Below, one piece after another: positions 44,652 through 53,230 of a stretch of DNA of 64,000 nucleotides (its first letter is position 1; each line of letters opens with the position of its first letter). Position numbers and translations under genes: made by a program. The notes under the pieces are model-generated. The model was not told the origin of the DNA. It made no database searches and saw nothing but the letters and a program-made list of their open reading frames with translations. The stretch is from Thermococcus thioreducens. Lineage in GTDB: Archaea; Methanobacteriota_B; Thermococci; Thermococcales; Thermococcaceae. Location: NCBI RefSeq assembly GCF_002214545.1, contig NZ_CP015105.1, positions 1,054,001-1,118,000 of the forward strand, read 5' to 3'.

Positions 44652-45761
44652 ATGAAAGTCAGAAAGAATCCCATTGAGACTTCTCTGCCAACACTTCAGG
44701 ACGTCCAATATGTAACTGCGATTTATCAGCGTCTAAGTGGGAATTCTGAGGCAGAAACACTCACAAACTTATTAGAATGGCAGGAACGAAATATACAGTA
44801 CTGGAAAGAGAGATATTGGGCCGCTAGCGGGATAATGATATTTTTGATAATCATTATTTTTGTTCTTGTGACTCTCTTTTTTAGCGTGATCAATGTCCCA
44901 TATCTGTCCTCATTATCAAAGAAGGCATTTTTGTTATTTGGACTTATCAGCATACTCATTTGCACCTTCCTTGTTGTATTTTTGTGTTTTATGCTACCTT
45001 ATAACTATTATAATCTTGTAGCACAAGAGCGTCAGAGCCCCCCTAAGAAGCTTAAGAAAATGTTTAAGTTAGTTTACCATACGATTAAACCAAGTCTACC
45101 TATTAGTATAATCCTAGATTATCGGCTGGCAGTATGCAGGGATTATGCAAAGCTTACAGCTGCATTGCTTTTTAATTCTTATCCTGAGGTTTACTTCCTC
45201 ACGCTTCCAAACCATGTTGCCGTTGCAGTCATGATAAACGGTAAATATTATGTTCTCGACCAGAAATTACCCATTATAAGTTTAGATAGCTGGATAAAAA
45301 GGTGGGAATGGCTCCTTTGGGCATTGAGACTTAAAAATAAGCTTTTGCTTAGAAGATACATTCCCGAGTGTAGCATGTATCTTGTCCAATTCGAAAAAAA
45401 CCTAAATGGGACTATTTTAGCCAAACCCACTATTAGAGAGTATATACGTTACAAGGTAAAAACTTACGAGAAAGATGATATTAGAACTTGCATAGAAAAA
45501 CTAGAGAAGCTCTTAATCAACAAATTTGGACTTAATTCGGTGAAAGCAATTAGTAGAAAACCAGATTTCACAATTACTCTAAAAAACTATGGGATTTATT
45601 GTGAAAATGATGAGATAATTTTGTATTCAATTGCGAGAAGCATTAGGAATCGCATCGAAGCAGAATTATCTGGAGGTATCAAGAAATTATCTGGTCTTAG
45701 AATTTTTATGAAAGATGATCAGGATTTACTTGTGGAGGTATATCTCAAAATGCAAAAATAA
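44652..45761 (+). CDS. AT-rich membrane protein with transglutaminase-like domain
   Basis: The 369 residues include two membrane helices at about 60-125 ('IMIFLIIIIFVLVTLFF' and 'LLFGLISILICTFLVVFLC'). A soluble part follows with Cys in 'LAVCRDYAKLTAALLFN', His in 'LPNHVAVAVMING' and Asp in 'YYVLDQKLP', in the order and spacing of the transglutaminase/cysteine-protease triad. Base composition and codon use (many ATA, TTA, AAA) are far more AT-rich than in both neighbours, a sign of recent transfer. It ends six bases before the convergent valS stop. The target is unknown. Confidence 0.7.
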   Translation: MKVRKNPIETSLPTLQDVQYVTAIYQRLSGNSEAETLTNLLEWQERNIQYWKERYWAASGIMIFLIIIIFVLVTLFFSVINVPYLSSLSKKAFLLFGLISILICTFLVVFLCFMLPYNYYNLVAQERQSPPKKLKKMFKLVYHTIKPSLPISIILDYRLAVCRDYAKLTAALLFNSYPEVYFLTLPNHVAVAVMINGKYYVLDQKLPIISLDSWIKRWEWLLWALRLKNKLLLRRYIPECSMYLVQFEKNLNGTILAKPTIREYIRYKVKTYEKDDIRTCIEKLEKLLINKFGLNSVKAISRKPDFTITLKNYGIYCENDEIILYSIARSIRNRIEAELSGGIKKLSGLRIFMKDDQDLLVEVYLKMQK

Positions 45762-45767
45762 AAGGGC

Positions 45768-48440
45768 TCAGAAGAACACCACAACGGCATCCCCAACGAC
45801 TGCCGTCTCGACCTCTTCGCCCTCGCTGAACACTGCCTTCCTGAGCACGATGTCCTCCTTGCCCAGCTCGACCGTCTGGCCTTCCACCTCAAACTCGACC
45901 TTTCCGGCCTCTTTGAGGGCCCTTGCAACCTCTTCCGCGTTCTCCTTGAGGTAGGCGGTGATCTTCGGCACGAGCTTGCCGTAGCGCGGGCCAACAGTCC
46001 TGAAGTTGGGCTTTATCTCAATGATGCGCTCCTCAAGTTCCGGCTCGCCCTGGATTATCTCCAGCTTCTCGATGTTCATGGTTCCGGCGATGTCCTTCTC
46101 GATGGCCTTCAGGGCCTCGTAGGAATCGGTGGCGTAGATGGCCACGTGCTTGAGCTTGGCGTTCAGAGCGAGGCCGTGGCTGTTCTTGTAGCGCCTCATG
46201 ACACCGACTATCTCGCGGGCGAGCTCTCCGAGCCTCTCGGCCTCCTCGCTTATCCTGCCCTCATCGTACTTCGGCCACTCGAGGAGGTGCACGCTCTTGA
46301 CACCAACGTGCCTCTTGAACATCTCCTGGTAGAGCTCCTCAGTTATGTGCGGCGCGAACGGAGCGAGGAGGAGCATCACGTTGTAAAGCAGCTCGTAGAG
46401 TGCCGCTTTCGCCTTCAGCTTGCTCTCCTCGTCGTCGCCGTAGAGGCGGTACTTGATCATCTCGATGTAATCGTCGGCCACCTCATGCCAGACGAAGGTC
46501 ATCAGCTCTCTGGTGAGCAGGTTGAAGCGGTAGCGCTCCATCTCCTCGGCGGCGAACTTTATCAGCCTGTGGAGCCTGCTGAGTATCCAGCGGTCGATCG
46601 GCTCAAGCTCCTCCGGAGCGCTGCTCGGGTCAAAATCTACCAGATGACGCTCGGCGAAGCGGTAGATGTTCCAGACCTTCTGCAAAAACCTGTAGTTGTA
46701 GTCGACGATCTCCCACTTGAACGGGTGGTCCTCTCCGGGCGGAGCGAGGGCGGTCCAGAGGCGGAGCGCATCGGCGCCGTACTTCGGGATGACCTCGTCA
46801 GGGGCGACGACGTTGCCGTAGCTCTTGCTCATCTTCCTTCCGTCCGGGCCGGCCACCATTCCGTTGATGAGGACGTCATCCCAGGGCTTCTCGCCGGTTA
46901 GCTTATAGGTTCTGAATATCGTGTAGAAGGCCCACGTCCTTATGATGTCCGTCCCCTGCGGCCTGAGCGCGGTCGGGAAGTTGTGCTCGAACCAGCGCTT
47001 GGCCTCTTCGTCGCCCTTGATGGCCTCGTGCCACCGGGTTATGATGAGCGGGGTTATGCTTGAGTCTATCCAGCAGTCGAGGACGTCCGTGACGGGCTCA
47101 AGCTCGGCACCGCAGACCGGACACTTCTCGACCGGAGGTTTGTCAAAGCGCGGGTCAACCGGAAGGTCTTCTTCCCTCGCCGGAACCACGTGGCCGTTCT
47201 TGCAGACCCAGAACGGGAGCGTCGTTCCAAAGACCCTCTGTCTGCTGATGACCCAGTCCCAGTCCATACTCTCGGCCCAGTCCTTAAGCCTCAAGAACAT
47301 GTCCTCGGGGTACCAGTTGATCTCCTCCGCGACCTTCACTATCTCGTCCGTGAAGTCCTTCACCCTGATGAACCACTGGGTCTTGGGGAGCAGCTCGATG
47401 GGCGCCATACAGGAGCTCCTCTCGGTGTGCCTCAGCACGCGATGGTGGACCTTCTGCTTCTTATATAGCAGGCCCATCTTTTCGAGGTCCTCGGCTATTA
47501 CCTTCCTCGCCTCCTCGGTTTTCAGCCCCTTGTACGGCCCGGCGTTTTCGTTCATTGTGCCGTCCTCGTTGATTGCTATGATAACCGGCAGGTTGTAGCG
47601 CTTCTGCCAGACGACGTCCTGCTCGTCGCCGTAGGTACAGTTGTAGACCGCACCGGTTCCAAATTCGGGGTCAACGTCCTCATCGGCTATAACAGGCACT
47701 TCCCTCTCGAATATCGGGAGCTTAACCTTCTTACCTACCACGTCTTTGTAGCGCTCGTCGTCCGGGTGGACGAACACAGCGACACAGGCAGGCATCAGCT
47801 CGGGCCTCGTGGTGGCTATGGGGACGTAGCCGGAGCCGTCAGCTAAGGGGAGTTTGATGTAGTAGAGGTAGCCGTCCTCCTCGACGTAGCCAACCTCCGC
47901 TTTGGCGAGGCTTGTCCTGCATCTTGGACACCAGTAGACCGGGTGCTTGTCGCGGTAGAGCATGCCCTTCTCGTAGAACTCAAGGAGGGACTTCTGCACG
48001 GCAGCCTTGTACCAGTCGTCCATCGTGTGGTACTCAAGGTCCCAGTCGGCGGAATAGCCAATCCTAATGAACTGGTTTCTCATCGCCTCAATGGCCTGCC
48101 AGGTCCATTCGACGCACTTCTGGAGGAATTTCTCCGGCTGGTCTTTGCTGATTCCGAACTCCTTTTCGACCTTCAGCTCAGTCGGGAGGCCGTGGTTGTC
48201 AAAGCCCTGGGGGAAGAGCACGTTGTAGCCGGTCATTCTCTTATATCTCGCTATGATGTCGATCCAGGTGTGGCTGAGCACGTGACCGAGGTGGAGCGTT
48301 CCGCTCGTGAACGGGGGCGGGGTGTCTATCGCGTAGCTCGGTCTTTTCTCATCGAGCTCGTACTTGTAGATTTTCTCCTCAAGCCAGAACTTCTGCCACT
48401 TCGGCTCAATCTCGTTCGGGTCGTAGGTCTTAGGAAGCAT
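45768..48440 (-). CDS. valS: Valyl-tRNA synthetase
   Basis: This class I synthetase has 890 residues. The HIGH motif appears as 'GTLHLGHVLSH' near residue 50, KMSKS as 'GRKMSKSYGNVV', and the editing domain spans the middle with 'TTRPELMPACVAVFVHP'. Zinc-type cysteine pairs 'CPRCR' and 'CPVCG' are present. GGGTGAT precedes the ATG at 48440, so the three-codon extension is dropped. The minus-strand TATA GATTTTTAAGCC (48489-48500) is suitably placed. Confidence 0.97.
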   Translation of the reverse strand: MLPKTYDPNEIEPKWQKFWLEEKIYKYELDEKRPSYAIDTPPPFTSGTLHLGHVLSHTWIDIIARYKRMTGYNVLFPQGFDNHGLPTELKVEKEFGISKDQPEKFLQKCVEWTWQAIEAMRNQFIRIGYSADWDLEYHTMDDWYKAAVQKSLLEFYEKGMLYRDKHPVYWCPRCRTSLAKAEVGYVEEDGYLYYIKLPLADGSGYVPIATTRPELMPACVAVFVHPDDERYKDVVGKKVKLPIFEREVPVIADEDVDPEFGTGAVYNCTYGDEQDVVWQKRYNLPVIIAINEDGTMNENAGPYKGLKTEEARKVIAEDLEKMGLLYKKQKVHHRVLRHTERSSCMAPIELLPKTQWFIRVKDFTDEIVKVAEEINWYPEDMFLRLKDWAESMDWDWVISRQRVFGTTLPFWVCKNGHVVPAREEDLPVDPRFDKPPVEKCPVCGAELEPVTDVLDCWIDSSITPLIITRWHEAIKGDEEAKRWFEHNFPTALRPQGTDIIRTWAFYTIFRTYKLTGEKPWDDVLINGMVAGPDGRKMSKSYGNVVAPDEVIPKYGADALRLWTALAPPGEDHPFKWEIVDYNYRFLQKVWNIYRFAERHLVDFDPSSAPEELEPIDRWILSRLHRLIKFAAEEMERYRFNLLTRELMTFVWHEVADDYIEMIKYRLYGDDEESKLKAKAALYELLYNVMLLLAPFAPHITEELYQEMFKRHVGVKSVHLLEWPKYDEGRISEEAERLGELAREIVGVMRRYKNSHGLALNAKLKHVAIYATDSYEALKAIEKDIAGTMNIEKLEIIQGEPELEERIIEIKPNFRTVGPRYGKLVPKITAYLKENAEEVARALKEAGKVEFEVEGQTVELGKEDIVLRKAVFSEGEEVETAVVGDAVVVFF

Positions 48441-48488
48441 GGGCATCACCCTTTCTGTTTTTTGAAGATGGGTTACCCTCAGAAGGGC

Positions 48489-48602: not shown

Positions 48603-48710
48603 AGGGTATAGAAATGAGCCCGAGGTTTAAAAAGTTTGGGGTTAAAGAGCTCTCAGAGGGACCCATTCCCGGAGATGAGCTTGTCCCATGTTATAGAGCA
48701 TTCCACGGTC

Positions 48711-49223
48711 TTAGTCTCTGAGCACGTCCTTGTACTTGCTCTTCCGCACGAGCTCTTTAACCCTCTCGAGTCCTGTCAGGTAAGCCTCATCCCTGGTTCC
48801 CTTCAGGTACTCCTTGAGGAATTCCAGGGCGGCTTTCACGTACTCCCTGACTTCGACCCTCTCCCTGCCAATAAATCGTCCATCCTCGAAGGCCTCAATG
48901 AGCAGGTAATCGCCCTCCTTCCTAAACACCACTGGAGAGACAGGCTCGTAAGTGCCGAAACCCACCCTGAGTTTCCCGTCCCTGCAGTTCCTTCTTATCA
49001 CCCACCTCTCGTCCTCCTCGAACTTTTCAAGCACGTAGGGGATTTCATCGCATGACGAGACTGCAAAGGTTACTGTAGCGAGCATTGCCGCCAGGGCCTG
49101 CACAATGTAGCAGAGTGCCAATACAAACTCTTTCCCGTTAATCTCAACCTCAATCTCAGCACCAAATCCCTCGGATTCCTCTAACTCTTCGAGAGTGAGA
49201 TCAACCGAGAACTTAACCGGCAT
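48711..49223 (-). CDS. Immunity-like protein of the toxin locus (third)
   Basis: This 170-residue soluble, acidic protein of unknown family shares a '(T/S)Y(E/D)P' motif followed about ten residues later by a hydrophobic strand ('GTYEPVSPVVFRKEGDYLLIEAF') and a long C-terminal helix with the two other immunity-like proteins in this locus. It is the most downstream gene of the same-strand group. A hydrophobic, alanine-rich segment ('LALCYIVQALAAMLATVTF') lies in the middle. Function is inferred from context only. The ATG at 49223 gives the natural N-terminus MPVKFSVD. Confidence 0.55.
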   Translation of the reverse strand: MPVKFSVDLTLEELEESEGFGAEIEVEINGKEFVLALCYIVQALAAMLATVTFAVSSCDEIPYVLEKFEEDERWVIRRNCRDGKLRVGFGTYEPVSPVVFRKEGDYLLIEAFEDGRFIGRERVEVREYVKAALEFLKEYLKGTRDEAYLTGLERVKELVRKSKYKDVLRD

Positions 49224-49268
49224 TAGAACCACCCTCTGGTCTTTCTCTTTAAAATTTTGAGATTTACT

Positions 49269-49931
49269 TTAGGGTTCCTTCAGAATTCTTCTGCTTAATA
49301 GCTTCCAGGCCTCCTCAACGTCATTTATTAGACTCGTGTATTCGCTAATCCCATGTTCTTCGAACAGCGGAATGTAGCCGCTGAGCTCTCCAAGTGCCGT
49401 TTTTACTATCCCTGCTACGTATCCTGCAAATATTTCGGTTTCCAACTCTGCAACTTGCTTGTAGGGGATACTAATTAAGTATAAAGTATCTATTTTCTTG
49501 AAAGCAAACATTGGAACCGTAGGATCATAACTCCCAAAAACCGAGTAAAAAACAGGGGTCAAAGTTAAAATCTCGGGTCTTCCCTTTAGAATCTCTTTAA
49601 GAATCTCCACATCTTCCGTTAACCATTCTGGAATGTCATGTACGTTCTTGAGCATCATGCCATTGAAATCAACCTCTCTGGGTATATCACTCAAAACAGC
49701 ATAAAAAGCGAGCGCAGTGAGGTCTAAAAGAAACACCTCGAAGTTAACTGTTGCCTGGAATATTTCGTTTCTCCTGTAAAACATCCACACTTCATATTCC
49801 TCTAAACATTTAGTGATAATCAGTTCATGGCTGTCCCCTTTATTAATCCCGCGTTCTATGATTTCCTTTCCTAATTTTTCAAACTTTTCATAACCCCCAT
49901 AAAATTTGAATTGAACTTCGAAATCCTCCAT
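49269..49931 (-). CDS. Immunity-like protein next to the orphan toxin tip
   Basis: This 220-residue protein of unknown family is AT-rich relative to the core genome. It contains 'GSYDPTVPMFAFKKIDTLYLISI', matching the motif in the genes on either side, and a C-terminal helical part. It lies directly downstream of the orphan toxin tip, the place where a cognate immunity gene sits in polymorphic toxin systems. GGGAGGGGG precedes the ATG. The immunity role is a prediction. Confidence 0.6.
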   Translation of the reverse strand: MEDFEVQFKFYGGYEKFEKLGKEIIERGINKGDSHELIITKCLEEYEVWMFYRRNEIFQATVNFEVFLLDLTALAFYAVLSDIPREVDFNGMMLKNVHDIPEWLTEDVEILKEILKGRPEILTLTPVFYSVFGSYDPTVPMFAFKKIDTLYLISIPYKQVAELETEIFAGYVAGIVKTALGELSGYIPLFEEHGISEYTSLINDVEEAWKLLSRRILKEP

Positions 49932-49988
49932 AATCCCCCTCCCATGATCGTCAATTCAGGTGCTTAAAAAATAAAAATTCGGTGCAAC

Positions 49989-50494
49989 TCATCTATCCAC
50001 TGGAAACGCTGTAACAATACGATACGTGCCGTCTTTCCATTGAATAACCCTCAACTTGTTTTTAGCCTCATTCCAGAGTAATGCTTTTCCAATGCGAGTT
50101 TTCTGTATTTTTTACTGGATCCGGGGCAATATGGCCTTCCACCTTCCATGGTCTCTTTGAGCATTTGGAGGAGCTGCTTGGCGGTTATCTGTTCGAATTT
50201 CGATTTGTAATCGTACATTCCCTTTTTAATGTGTCTTTCAATTATGTGTGTTGCCCCTTCATTGTCAATGATGACGTCTCCTTCCGGGAAGTAGCCGCCG
50301 CAGGCGTATCTTCCCCTGAACTTTACATTAAAGTTCTTGTATTCCTTCTCAAACTCCTCTGCAAGCTTTTTAGCATCGTTAGCGTCCCATCCGTTGAGGT
50401 ATGCTTGTGCGAGGAGTTTGCCATACTCCTTCGGACTGAATAAGTCTTCGACAGCCTTGACTTCGTCTCTGGTTATTGTTATAACTGACTTCAC
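49989..50494 (-). pseudogene. Orphan toxin tip (shared pre-toxin segment plus divergent nuclease-like tip), frameshifted
   Basis: From a GTG at 50494 the frame reads KSVITITRDEV and is identical to the full toxin for about 50 residues, then diverges. It keeps 'GDVIIDNEGATHIIERHI', then stops at 50051. The expected end, 'RVIQWKDGTYRIVTAFPVDR', is intact in another frame to a stop at 49989. One missing A in the run at 50099-50102 explains it. An in-frame stop lies upstream and no ribosome-binding site is visible, so it looks silent until recombined into the full gene, as with orphan Rhs/CDI tips. Confidence 0.75.
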
Positions 50495-50502
50495 TATGAC
50501 GG
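50349..50502. repeat. 154-bp perfect direct repeat, copy A (orphan tip)
   Basis: Every base matches 51761-51914. It encodes the pre-toxin segment (VKSVITITRDEV through LAEEF) at the very start of the orphan module, and homology ends abruptly on both sides. Confidence 0.97.
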
Positions 50503-50534
50503 GTTTCAGATTTTTGGAGGGGACTTAGATGGAG

Positions 50535-51386
50535 TTAAGCCTTCAGTCTTTCGAGTTCCCTTTCCGCATCTCTGATGGCCTCATCAATGGCCCTTAGGAG
50601 GACATTCTTTGGGACTTTGACGGCCATACCGGAATACAGGACGAATGCCAGCAAAAAGTCCTTCTCTAATTTTGCCGCGTAGAGAACTTCAAAGGGATCA
50701 TAGGTTGAAAGGGTGAAGCGCACGAATGGAGGAACTGCCCCTGTCGAGAGCTTTTTAAGTCCGGTCAATTCCTGAAGAAGACCCAGTCTCTCTGGCTTTT
50801 GTGCCTCTCTAGAAGATAACCGTTTGATTTCACCATCAATGTCCCATTTGATCCGCCACTTCTCTCCAGGGAGGTTTTCGTCCGCAACGAAAGCCTTGAG
50901 AAGTTTAAGCTCCTTAACATACCCCTCGAGATTAACGAACGCCTCCAGTATGTACGTGCTCCCGTAAACTTGAATTTCGTACTCATCCATAACGTCCTCA
51001 GGTTCACCGAACATCTCAAGCACTTCAGGTGAAGGCGGCTTTAGCTTGAACCTGAGCCACTCCATCCGCACAGGTTTATTGTTGAGAACCTCTTGGACGT
51101 TCTCCAGGGATTTTCGAACTGTTCTATCGAACTTGCTTAGGGAAGTCTGCATTTCCCTGCCATCTGGCAGGATCAGACAAAACCCCCTTCCTTCTGCCCT
51201 TATCCTCAGATCCCAGAGCCTCCCCGGCAGATTCTCCATCGATTGGAGTGCCTTTAGGGAGCTCATGAATTCATCCAGCGTCACCGGGGTTTCGCTGATG
51301 AAAACCGGCCCATCCTCAAGCACCAGCACGGGGAATCCCCTGTCTCCATCTTGGAGGAAGAAGGAAAAAGCAAAGATTGAAATCAC
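50535..51386 (-). CDS. Immunity-like protein following the full toxin
   Basis: This 283-residue protein of unknown family begins seven bases after the toxin stop. The GTG start at 51386 lies in a GGGGGAGGTGATT stretch, so the precise start is uncertain. Its C-terminal part contains 'LSTYDPFEVLYAAKLEKDFLLAFV' and a terminal helix, matching the shared motif of the two smaller immunity-like proteins. No signal peptide is convincing, so it is likely cytosolic, as expected of an immunity protein. The role is inferred from position and resemblance. Confidence 0.6.
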   Translation of the reverse strand: MISIFAFSFFLQDGDRGFPVLVLEDGPVFISETPVTLDEFMSSLKALQSMENLPGRLWDLRIRAEGRGFCLILPDGREMQTSLSKFDRTVRKSLENVQEVLNNKPVRMEWLRFKLKPPSPEVLEMFGEPEDVMDEYEIQVYGSTYILEAFVNLEGYVKELKLLKAFVADENLPGEKWRIKWDIDGEIKRLSSREAQKPERLGLLQELTGLKKLSTGAVPPFVRFTLSTYDPFEVLYAAKLEKDFLLAFVLYSGMAVKVPKNVLLRAIDEAIRDAERELERLKA

Positions 51387-51393
51387 CTCCCCC

Positions 51394-52368
51394 TCAGTAT
51401 CTCCCTGAAGATGGTGGGAATGCCGTAACTATCCGGTACATCCCCCACTTGATTCTCTCAATCACTACTACCACTTTCTTTCCCAGCTTTGGGGAATATC
51501 TAACAAGTACTATTCTCTGTTTTCCGTTAACAATGTCTCCACATGTAGTTTTATATGGATTTTCTATAGTCTTGCCCAGTTCGTTTAAAAGATCCACGGC
51601 GGAAATGTGAGTGAACTGATCTTTTCCAGGCTTTTTCTTGATATGGTTAACAATAATATGGTTTGCCCCTTTTGCATCAATGATAACATCTCCTCCTTCG
51701 AATACTCCACAATCGAGGTTTGCCCCATTGAAATACGCTCTGAAACCCCGGTACTGCTTATCAAACTCCTCTGCAAGCTTTTTAGCATCGTTAGCGTCCC
51801 ATCCGTTGAGGTATGCTTGTGCGAGGAGTTTGCCATACTCCTTCGGACTGAATAAGTCTTCGACAGCCTTGACTTCGTCTCTGGTTATTGTTATAACTGA
51901 CTTCACTATGACGGTTTCCTTTTTGAGGCCAAACCACTTCTTTTTAACATAGCCGTATCCAATTTCTACTTTAGTCCCCCATCGGTTCTTGTTCTCGATT
52001 CCTTTTGCCAGTTCTTGCCCATTGTATGAAATTCTGTCTGGAAGTTCTTTATAGAACGCTTCAGTGAACTCACTAACAGGTTTGGAGTACAAATATTTTG
52101 AAATTGCCAACACAACTCCGCTTATAAACACTACCCATCCTATGCCCGGAACAAATGTACCAAAGAATTTCTCTACTACAATCTCAGCACCAACATTCTC
52201 AGGCTGGATCTCACCGCCAGGCCTTTTCTCCGGACTGGGGTCTCCGGGTAGCGTTGCCGTACTGTTCACCGTCGCGTTAACGAAGCTGGCAGTAGCACTG
52301 GCTCCACTGACCATCATTCCAAAGAAGAGCAACACAAGGGTTAGAACAAGGAACCGCTTCCAGCCCAT
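51394..52368 (-). CDS. Membrane-targeted polymorphic-type toxin with nuclease-like C-terminal tip
   Basis: The 324 residues open with a signal peptide (1-25, ending SGASA). An N/T/P-rich stretch with possible glycosylation sites (NATVNST) follows, then one membrane helix at about 71-92. A pre-toxin region (about 153-203) is encoded by the 154-bp repeat, and a tip runs from 204. The tip has 'GDVIIDAKGANHIIVNHI', a Cys pair (C220, C276) kept in the orphan tip, and the end 'WGMYRIVTAFP'. This pattern resembles BECR-fold (barnase/EndoU/colicin/RelE) RNase toxins, but the family is not confirmed. GGAGGTG precedes the ATG at 52368. Confidence 0.65.
   Translation of the reverse strand: MGWKRFLVLTLVLLFFGMMVSGASATASFVNATVNSTATLPGDPSPEKRPGGEIQPENVGAEIVVEKFFGTFVPGIGWVVFISGVVLAISKYLYSKPVSEFTEAFYKELPDRISYNGQELAKGIENKNRWGTKVEIGYGYVKKKWFGLKKETVIVKSVITITRDEVKAVEDLFSPKEYGKLLAQAYLNGWDANDAKKLAEEFDKQYRGFRAYFNGANLDCGVFEGGDVIIDAKGANHIIVNHIKKKPGKDQFTHISAVDLLNELGKTIENPYKTTCGDIVNGKQRIVLVRYSPKLGKKVVVVIERIKWGMYRIVTAFPPSSGRY
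51761..51914. repeat. 154-bp perfect direct repeat, copy B (full toxin)
   Basis: It is identical to 50349-50502 and lies inside the full toxin just before the variable tip. The two copies are in direct orientation 1412 bp apart, so recombination would replace the tip and delete the first immunity-like gene. Confidence 0.97.
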
Positions 52369-52483
52369 GAGTTCACCTCCAATATTGTTCATAAGGATAA
52401 CAAATTCAAGTCTTAAAAAATTTTCTACTATTAGTATTAACAAAACAACAGCAATTAAAATTAGGTTACTTCACAAAGTTGCA

Positions 52484-53230
52484 TCATTTCATCGCCACCA
52501 GCCAGTACCTCCTGTCGTTGGGGCTCAGCTCGTGCCCATCTCCGTAGATTTTGACCTTCCTGAAATGCTTCCCAGCTAGGAGTCTCATCTCCCTCGGGGT
52601 GTAGATGTTGAGCTCGTCGTCCACCATGAAGGCTCTAACGCTCCCGTCGGGCTTAACTATTTGAACCAGCCTCTTGAAGCGGAGCTTCTGGAAGGCCGGC
52701 TCGACCTCTCGCCAGTCGGTTATGACTAGCCTCTCATCTCCTTTCGTCTCGTCCCAGACTATCGGGCCGTCCCTCCCGCCGTAGTGCCATGCTGGGAAGT
52801 CGGCTATAAAGACCCCTCCTGGCCGGAGGGCTCTTTTCACTGAATTAAATAACTGTTGAATTGCAGAATCATCGAAATAGGTAATCGAGGAGAAGAACAT
52901 GGTCACCGCGTCGAACTCCTCCTCAAAATCAACCTCCAACGCGTCCCCCTGAATGAACTCGACGCTAAGCCCTCCCCTTTCGGCCTTTCTTCTCGCGACG
53001 GTCAGCATCTCCTCGTGGAGGTCTAAACCGACAACCTCGTACCCTCTCCTTGCGAGCTCAAGGGTCGGAATTCCGGTGCCGCAGGCGAGGTCGAGAACCC
53101 GCGTTACTTCTCGTTCGGCTTCGTTCCGGAAGAGCTCCTCCACAAAGTCAATCTCATCTCCAACCCGTTCTGCCCTCCTCCGGTAAATGGCATCGTAGTA
53201 TTCTGCCAAAACCGTGTAGAGCTCGTGCAT
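52484..53230 (-). CDS. SAM-dependent methyltransferase (class I)
   Basis: This 248-residue protein has motif I 'RVLDLACGTGIPTLELARRG' (cite VLDLACGTGIP), motif II 'VVGLDLHEEML', 'IQGDALEVDFEEEFDAVTMF' and a C-terminal 'HYGGRDGPIVWDE' insert. It is a small-molecule-type methyltransferase with unknown acceptor. GGTGATGCC precedes the ATG. It lies five bases downstream of the CobD-type gene on the same strand, so it may belong to the cobamide operon or just be cotranscribed. Confidence 0.9.
   Translation of the reverse strand: MHELYTVLAEYYDAIYRRRAERVGDEIDFVEELFRNEAEREVTRVLDLACGTGIPTLELARRGYEVVGLDLHEEMLTVARRKAERGGLSVEFIQGDALEVDFEEEFDAVTMFFSSITYFDDSAIQQLFNSVKRALRPGGVFIADFPAWHYGGRDGPIVWDETKGDERLVITDWREVEPAFQKLRFKRLVQIVKPDGSVRAFMVDDELNIYTPREMRLLAGKHFRKVKIYGDGHELSPNDRRYWLVAMK

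What the first reader, a model, noticed from the sequence alone, without database searches (positions are those of the whole stretch)
48711..52368. Candidate archaeal polymorphic toxin locus with a swappable tip
A signal-peptide and membrane-helix protein ends in a nuclease-like tip. It is followed on the same strand by an immunity-like gene, then an orphan second tip, then two more immunity-like genes. Shared pre-toxin sequence plus divergent tip plus interleaved small cytosolic genes is the architecture of bacterial Rhs/CDI systems. I know of no described system of this layout in Thermococcales. The region is more AT-rich than its flanks, which fits recent mobility.
Basis: partly seen in the sequence, partly recalled or inferred. 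Interest (0 to 1): 0.85.

Follow-up and report, generated by a model that had tools for sequence, protein, structure and literature searches.

The report
Swappable secreted toxins in heat-loving archaea
This stretch of a heat-loving archaeon's chromosome carries a probably secreted protein ending in a probable RNA-cutting toxin, a spare toxin tip and three likely protective genes, a mix-and-match weapon kit of the kind known from bacteria, which differs from species to species and could be tested in a laboratory archaeon.

Summary
Window 48645-52484 is an AT-rich island between valS and a methyltransferase gene. It encodes a 324-aa protein (signal-peptide-like leader, hydrophobic segment, conserved pre-toxin, 118-aa tip), its probable immunity gene, an orphan second tip with its own probable immunity gene, and a third immunity-like gene whose toxin is missing. 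The tip is predicted to have the BECR RNase fold; its closest structural matches are chains from CDI and toxin-antitoxin systems. Two more proteins with this leader lie elsewhere in the genome, with EndoU-like and PD-(D/E)xK-like tips. In related genomes, similar pre-toxins carry different tips and different pre-toxins carry the same tip. The gene after each toxin tracks the tip, not the leader. The valS site is empty in 14 of 30 genomes and holds toxins with other tips in three. This is a polymorphic toxin system. Archaeal ones were already predicted (Makarova 2019, not readable here), so the kind is known; I found no description of this family in what I could read. A probable T. kodakarensis copy makes it testable. 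Toxicity, delivery and immunity are inferred, not shown.

The parts
48645..52484 (.). Inserted island between valS and the methyltransferase gene
   Evidence: Empty-site genomes align to the flanks up to 48640-48644 and again from 52493 (G025, G002) or 52488 (G019); 193-bp gap in G025, whose ValRS is 99% identical
51394..52368 (-). Polymorphic toxin, 324 aa: signal-peptide-like leader, linker, hydrophobic segment, pre-toxin, BECR-like tip
52288..52368 (-). Signal-peptide-like leader (residues 1-27, ASATA motif)
   Evidence: hydropathy, conserved leader; no signal-peptide predictor was available
52099..52158 (-). Second hydrophobic segment (residues 71-90), candidate membrane-entry helix
   Evidence: KD 2.13; low pLDDT in the model; role inferred
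51751..51903 (-). Conserved pre-toxin (residues 156-206)
   Evidence: 84-94% identical to L035-L038 although three of those four tips are 31-40% identical
51397..51750 (-). Toxin tip (residues 207-324), predicted BECR RNase; H237, H242 and T315 invariant in 13 of 13 aligned relatives
50535..51386 (-). Probable immunity gene for the main tip (283 aa)
   Evidence: 77% identical to the gene after the same tip in L035; tip/next-gene correlation
49989..50505 (-). Orphan second tip with pre-toxin, no leader, frame broken near its end
   Evidence: related tips are C-terminal in full-length proteins L043, L047, L048
49269..49931 (-). Probable immunity gene for the orphan tip (220 aa)
   Evidence: 77% identical to L047 9683-10360, which follows a leaderless, partial copy of the same tip
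48711..49232 (-). Third immunity-like gene (173 aa), no toxin of its own here
   Evidence: 93% identical to the gene directly after a third kind of tip in L038
51751..51917 (.). Direct repeat, copy in the main toxin
   Evidence: 97.6% to the orphan copy, at most 89.8% to any of the 31 other regions searched
50339..50505 (.). Direct repeat, copy in the orphan tip
52395..52425 (-). Promoter-like stretch: TATA-like box and imperfect GGATTTATTATCC-type palindrome, alike in 14 of 20 toxin genes with upstream sequence (by eye)
   Evidence: function inferred

Best explanation
This is a chromosomal polymorphic toxin system of Thermococcales. The leader protein is exported by its signal peptide, enters a competing, probably related, archaeal cell (perhaps aided by its hydrophobic segment) and cuts RNA with its C-terminal BECR-fold tip. 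The acidic protein encoded right after it binds the basic tip and protects the producer. The orphan tip and its own immunity gene are a stored cassette: recombination between the near-identical pre-toxin repeats would place the orphan tip on the leader. The third immunity gene protects against a toxin carried by other species. Shown here: leader/tip mosaicism, linkage of tip and following gene, orphan tip, lone immunity-type genes, empty sites. Inferred: toxicity, RNase activity, export, entry, target, protection, the recombination step.
For: Same leader with three different tips in this genome. 29 leader hits in 32 regions, broken copies included. Tip swaps: window against L036 pre-toxin 88%, tip 40%; L051 against L053 mid-region 26%, pre-toxin 57%, tip 90%. 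The gene after the toxin tracks the tip (28 pairs, r 0.85, 0 of 5000 permutations) but not the leader of the same protein (23 pairs: tip r 0.82, 0 of 5000; leader r 0.07, 938 of 5000). BECR evidence. Empty and differently filled site. Toxin pI 9.35 against immunity pI 4.6-5.1. Repeat.
Against: No activity is known. The window tip alone reaches only E 0.079 for PBECR2, under the Pfam cut-off. No Foldseek hit at E <= 0.001, and Z 5-6.8 is middling. The profile of full-length relatives matched no PDB sequence. No delivery or receptor domain was recognised. In one search, 35 of 75 similar-tip pairs have following genes of similarity 0.3 or less, among them L036a, whose partner resembles none of those of its similar tips. 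Two of the three small proteins have an internal hydrophobic stretch. Many relatives are broken (stops).
Confidence: 0.88

Rival explanations
1. A self-acting system (toxin-antitoxin or abortive-infection module) that acts inside the producing cell, the leader only anchoring the toxin at the membrane.
For: The listed structural matches include BrnT, RelE2 and HigB entries; adjacent acidic partners.
Against: Signal-peptide-like leader kept in relatives whose tips belong to different nuclease folds; the toxin gene comes first; immunity-type genes occur without a toxin; PADLOC gave one weak chance-like hit only.
Confidence: 0.07
2. A surface self/nonself recognition module like VARTIG, in which variable tips are binding domains and not enzymes.
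For: Same order, variable C-termini, co-directed small genes; VARTIG's authors point to the likeness of that system to polymorphic toxins.
Against: Tips resemble nuclease families and keep catalytic-type residues; no Ig domain among the Pfam matches.
Confidence: 0.03
3. A decaying remnant: the family was a toxin system, but this copy no longer works (compatible with the best explanation for the family).
For: The orphan tip is frame-broken; several relatives carry stops.
Against: The main toxin and all three immunity frames are open; catalytic-type residues are kept; repeat copies are recent.
Confidence: 0.1

Closest known systems
Sec-secreted polymorphic toxins with short linkers (Zhang 2012, PMC3482391; passages seen)
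   Same: Secretion signal, conserved N-terminus, variable C-terminal nuclease, adjacent immunity gene, standalone tip cassettes
   Different: Archaeal; no Rhs, HINT or metallopeptidase domain among the Pfam matches; the window's immunity proteins match no Pfam Imm family
CDI toxins and immunity proteins (entries such as 7m5f, 6cp9, 6vek)
   Same: Closest structural match of the tip (7m5f chain C, Z 6.8, 96 residues, 3.9 A; the listing does not say which component each chain is); the weak immunity model lists CdiI 5ffp and a chain of complex 4ntq (Z 6.2, 5.8) beside unrelated PURA chains
   Different: No filamentous CdiA stick; protein of 324 aa
Archaeal polymorphic toxin systems (Makarova 2019, mBio e00715-19; not read, known through PMC8416519, PMC6869823 and recall; loci with colicin D and PD-(D/E)xK domains also in PMC6393860, passages)
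   Same: Predicted in 141 archaeal genomes (PMC6869823 passage); RNase and DNase tips common (PMC8416519)
   Different: Cannot tell whether this family is listed there
VARTIG of Thermococcales (PMC8416519; abstract, introduction, first part of results, section on other archaea, discussion read)
   Same: Hypervariable, co-directed, same order of archaea, variable C-terminus
   Different: VARTIG proteins are large, Ig-based, with no recognised toxin; here short proteins with nuclease-like tips

Membership tests
Polymorphic toxin system | Conserved N-terminus with interchangeable C-terminal toxin domains | tested here: met
   BECR, EndoU-like and PD-(D/E)xK-like tips (several of these matches are below Pfam cut-offs)
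Polymorphic toxin system | Adjacent gene that co-varies with the tip (cognate immunity gene) | tested here: met
   linkage only; neutralisation not tested
Polymorphic toxin system | Standalone tip cassettes and lone immunity genes | tested here: met
   window 49989-50505 and 48711-49232; also L047, L052, L074
Polymorphic toxin system | Secretion signal or delivery module | tested here: inconclusive
   hydrophobic N-terminus in the 13 aligned full-length relatives, ASATA-like motif in most; no predictor available, no delivery domain seen
Polymorphic toxin system | Toxic to neighbours, neutralised by immunity protein | not testable with these tools
   needs bench work
BECR-fold RNase | N-terminal helices followed by a four-stranded meander, S/T in strand 4 | tested here: met
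   in the predicted model: helices 232-244, 251-254, 257-269, strands 273-280, 283-292, 297-307, 310-317 with T315 in the last, blocks of pLDDT 70-94 over residues 231-320; definition from PMC3482391 passages
BECR-fold RNase | Sequence match to a BECR family | tested here: met
   PBECR2 5 of 13, PBECR3 4 of 13 relatives at E <= 0.1, best 5.2e-6 and 8.9e-5; the window protein itself is below cut-off
BECR-fold RNase | RNase activity | not testable with these tools
   needs bench work
CDI (two-partner secretion) | Large filamentous CdiA | tested here: not met
   324-aa protein without such a Pfam match; a CdiB transporter was not searched for in the genome
VARTIG | Large protein with Ig-like domains | tested here: not met
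   324 aa, no Ig family among Pfam matches at E <= 1 nor in 13 relatives at E <= 0.1
Type II toxin-antitoxin | Small cytosolic toxin and antitoxin | tested here: inconclusive
   the toxin has a hydrophobic leader and a second hydrophobic segment, which speaks against it; location was not tested

The most novel reading that the evidence does not exclude
An undescribed archaeal class of short secreted toxins that need no injection machine: a shared promoter and leader, a self-inserting hydrophobic segment and exchangeable tip-plus-immunity cassettes, placed at about seven recurring chromosomal sites across Thermococcales, with arrays of lone immunity genes as protection against neighbours and a 167-bp repeat that allows a one-step change of tip.
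Probability: 0.3. Interest if true: 0.75.

Novelty: new member of a known kind. Interest (0 to 1): 0.58.

Why it matters
PMC8416519 (2021, introduction) says that archaeal polymorphic toxin systems had not been characterised experimentally. Here the tip/immunity pairing is resolved well enough to name pairs, and a 77%-identical toxin with the same kind of tip and a 77%-identical partner gene lies in G012, very probably Thermococcus kodakarensis KOD1: a 197-residue stretch of its RNase HII matches PDB chain 2dfe without a difference. That this chain comes from KOD1, and that KOD1's genome has G012's length, is recalled. T. kodakarensis can be manipulated genetically (recalled), so archaeal interference competition can be tested by gene deletion. 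It also offers an explanation for a set of fast-changing Thermococcales genes that the family libraries searched here did not name.

Tried and rejected
Pfam and NCBIfam on the immunity proteins gave nothing usable. PHROGs and PADLOC gave only chance-level hits for the orphan tip. No plasmid record matches the island DNA and no phage record the toxin, so no carrier element was found; both tools may leave out near records. A long pattern for the shared promoter had no match in this genome; it was too strict, since it missed the window's own copy, so it says nothing. The immunity model is weak (mean pLDDT 67.5, pTM 0.50): the CDI chains among its matches stand beside unrelated PURA chains at equal Z, so no fold is claimed for it. 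Foldseek gave no PDB hit at E <= 0.001 for toxin or immunity model. The profile of relatives found no PDB sequence. One genome-contig scan confirmed 6 loci, 5 from Thermococcales MAGs and 1 from a 3.4-kb contig labelled Thermotogota; it can leave out near genomes, so it is no census. Searches for earlier description were judged by listings; of the five papers that hold both 'Thermococcales' and 'polymorphic toxin' I saw passages of all, and only PMC8416519 describes a Thermococcales system of similar layout there (VARTIG). Makarova 2019 itself is not held.

Rows dropped: the 28 pairs were picked by hand from the gene calls. I left out broken or leader-only copies (L036 4983 and 11875, L041, L052's own leader piece, L056, L060), loci without a clear full toxin (L046, L061, L063), and leaderless tip pieces other than those of the window and L052 (in L033, L035, L036, L041, L044, L046, L047 among others). 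The partner was the first same-strand gene, stepping over small opposite-strand ORFs in L054 and L057. For one search five more pairs without a leader were dropped. All three 'partner similar, tip not' cases involve L057, whose tip looks damaged. Of the 14 empty sites, 4 were read as DNA (G025, G012, G002, G019) and 10 are judged by gap size alone; all 16 filled sites were fetched. Genomes in which the two flanking genes were not adjacent in the same orientation, or not both found, were left out of the 30 (31 of 61).
Full report
What is there. The window is G000:C1:1054001-1118000 of a 2.07-Mb genome in the same genus as G012, hence Thermococcus. Between the valyl-tRNA synthetase gene (45768-48449, minus; the name is my reading of the sequence) and a methyltransferase gene (52484-53230, minus; Pfam Methyltransf_25 4.5e-27) lie five co-directed frames: a 324-aa leader protein, a 283-aa protein, a 147-aa orphan tip, a 220-aa and a 173-aa protein. 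GC of the island is 45.1% against 54.1% in the rest of the window, and none of 301 windows of that length is as low.

Anatomy of the long protein. Residues 1-27 look like a signal peptide with an ASATA motif; residues 71-90 are hydrophobic again. Residues 156-206 are a conserved pre-toxin (LFSPKEYGKLLAQAYLNGWDAN) and residues 207-324 the tip. Across 13 full-length relatives (window included) H237, H242 and T315 are invariant, which agrees with the H, H, [ST], FP signature listed for barnase-type polymorphic toxins in PMC3482391 (passages); the FP is present in the window protein but not in all relatives. Pfam PBECR2 matches 5 of 13 and PBECR3 4 of 13 relatives, best 5.2e-6 and 8.9e-5, though the window protein alone is at 0.079. 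AlphaFold2 gives the tip as helices followed by strands 273-280, 283-292, 297-307 and 310-317, at block confidences of 70-94. That is the BECR arrangement as defined in PMC3482391. In the second look by VIA-align, the eight listed entries at Z >= 5 (11 chains counted) are all from toxin systems: CDI entries 7m5f, 6cp9, 6vek, 6cp8 and toxin-antitoxin entries 7vd7, BrnT 3u97, PfiAT 9w3a, RelBE2 3g5o, Z 5.0-6.8; the first unrelated row follows at 4.4. The titles do not always say whether the chain is toxin or partner. These Z values are middling and Foldseek alone was not significant, so the fold claim rests on the three lines together.

Swappable tips. In this genome two further proteins share the leader. 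One (L003/L033) ends in a tip with a weak EndoU match (0.0065, below cut-off), the other (L004/L034) in a tip with PD-(D/E)xK features. In the alignment of 10 such proteins E247, D278, E291 and K293 are invariant, and L049 and L050 match UPF0102 at 1.5e-4 and 2e-4, just below its cut-off. In 61 genus genomes 22 have a match; in 94 genomes of the order 40 have one at E <= 0.001 and, by my count, 32 at E <= 1e-10, in 5 of 6 genera. In 32 regions (window and 31 fetched around such hits) 29 ORFs hit the leader, several of them short or broken. Identity by segment shows mosaics: window against L036 is 89% in the middle, 88% in the pre-toxin and 40% in the tip; window against L038 92% in the pre-toxin and 31% in the tip; L051 against L053 is 26% in the middle, 57% in the pre-toxin and 90% in the tip.

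Immunity genes. For 28 toxins or orphan tips I compared the tip with the next same-strand gene. Similarities correlate at r = 0.85, 0 of 5000 permutations reaching it. As a control, in 23 of these with a leader, tip and partner correlate at 0.82 (0 of 5000) but leader and partner at 0.07 (938 of 5000); among the 13 BECR proteins the values are 0.91 (0 of 5000) and 0.04 (1700 of 5000). So relatedness of the genomes, as far as the leader reflects it, does not explain the link. Against it, 35 of 75 similar-tip pairs have partners of similarity 0.3 or less; many of these partners are still recognisable relatives, but that of L036a is not. Each small gene of the window can be placed. The 283-aa protein is 77% identical to the gene after the same tip in G012 (L035); relatives of it also stand elsewhere in arrays, as in L044, L047, L048 and L056. 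The 220-aa protein is 77% identical to a gene in L047 that follows a leaderless, partial copy of the window's orphan tip. The 173-aa protein is 93% identical to the gene directly after a third kind of tip in L038, whose toxin is absent here. The three share a weak motif around [FL][GS][ST]Y[DE]P and otherwise align poorly.

The orphan cassette. The pre-toxin of main toxin and orphan is a 167-bp direct repeat at 97.6% identity, while none of the 31 other regions exceeds 89.8%. Recombination across it would remove 1412 bp (main tip and first immunity gene) and place the orphan tip on the leader; this is inference. The orphan's frame is broken near its end, so the stored tip may not work as it stands.

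The chromosomal site. In 30 of 61 genus genomes both flanking genes were found adjacent in the same order and strand (counted from the rows). The gap is 182-207 bp in 14 of the 30, including G025, whose ValRS is 99% identical. Of the other 16, all fetched: 4 hold leader toxins with different tips (window, L040 with a broken leader, L053, L057 with a damaged tip), 7 hold a transporter-like gene only (label read from sequence), 1 holds that gene and a lone immunity-type gene 71.5% identical to one in L047 (G021), 2 hold, among other frames, pieces 73% and 76% identical to the gene after the L040 toxin (G059, G011), 2 hold other genes (G043, G026). Neighbouring-gene clusters suggest about six further recurring sites, for example L037/L038/L048/L054/L055/L056 and L042/L050/L058, again with different tips; I counted these by eye from the cluster table.

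Shared promoter. Of 20 toxin genes with upstream sequence, 14 (by eye) share about 100 bp upstream although they lie at different sites, with a TATA-like box and an imperfect GGATTTATTATCC palindrome; L035, L042, L043, L050, L051 and L058 differ. A common regulator is possible.

How it most likely works. Export by the signal peptide, entry into a competitor with help of the hydrophobic segment, RNA cleavage by the tip, protection by the adjacent gene; the extra tip and extra immunity gene are reserve and shield. Export, entry, toxicity and protection are inferred.

What is known. PMC3482391 (2012; passages) describes such systems in bacteria and calls the classical ones rare in archaea. PMC6393860 (2019; passages) shows archaeal loci with colicin D and PD-(D/E)xK domains as probable polymorphic toxin systems; I could not see which species. 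PMC8416519 (2021; abstract, introduction, first part of results, section on other archaea, discussion) says archaeal polymorphic toxins were predicted in Makarova 2019 but not tested, and describes VARTIG, which lacks toxin domains. PMC6869823 (passage) gives 141 archaeal genomes for Makarova 2019. That paper is not held. My searches brought up no description of this family, going by listings and passages, which is not proof that none exists. Hence: new member of a known kind, well supported, with a likely model-organism copy.

Noticed in passing
44652-45761: Transglutaminase-like membrane protein (DUF553, PF04473 7.6e-23) in the window's other AT-rich stretch, on the far side of valS.
   Followed up: no
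L085 1-3419: A 3.4-kb contig labelled Thermotogota MAG carries thermococcal-type toxin and immunity-type genes; probably a mis-binned contig, possibly transfer.
   Followed up: partly
L074 1670-2719: G021 keeps a lone immunity-type gene at the valS site without a toxin beside it.
   Followed up: partly
L066 1255-3203: At the same site G043 holds two frames (184 and 465 aa) of unknown nature.
   Followed up: no
L036 4983-13812: An island in G004 with three leader hits: one whole BECR toxin, one cut protein and one leader piece beside PD-(D/E)xK-like tips, plus several immunity-type genes.
   Followed up: partly
52395-52425: Imperfect palindrome just downstream of a TATA-like box, alike in 14 of 20 toxin genes; a possible operator.
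   Followed up: partly
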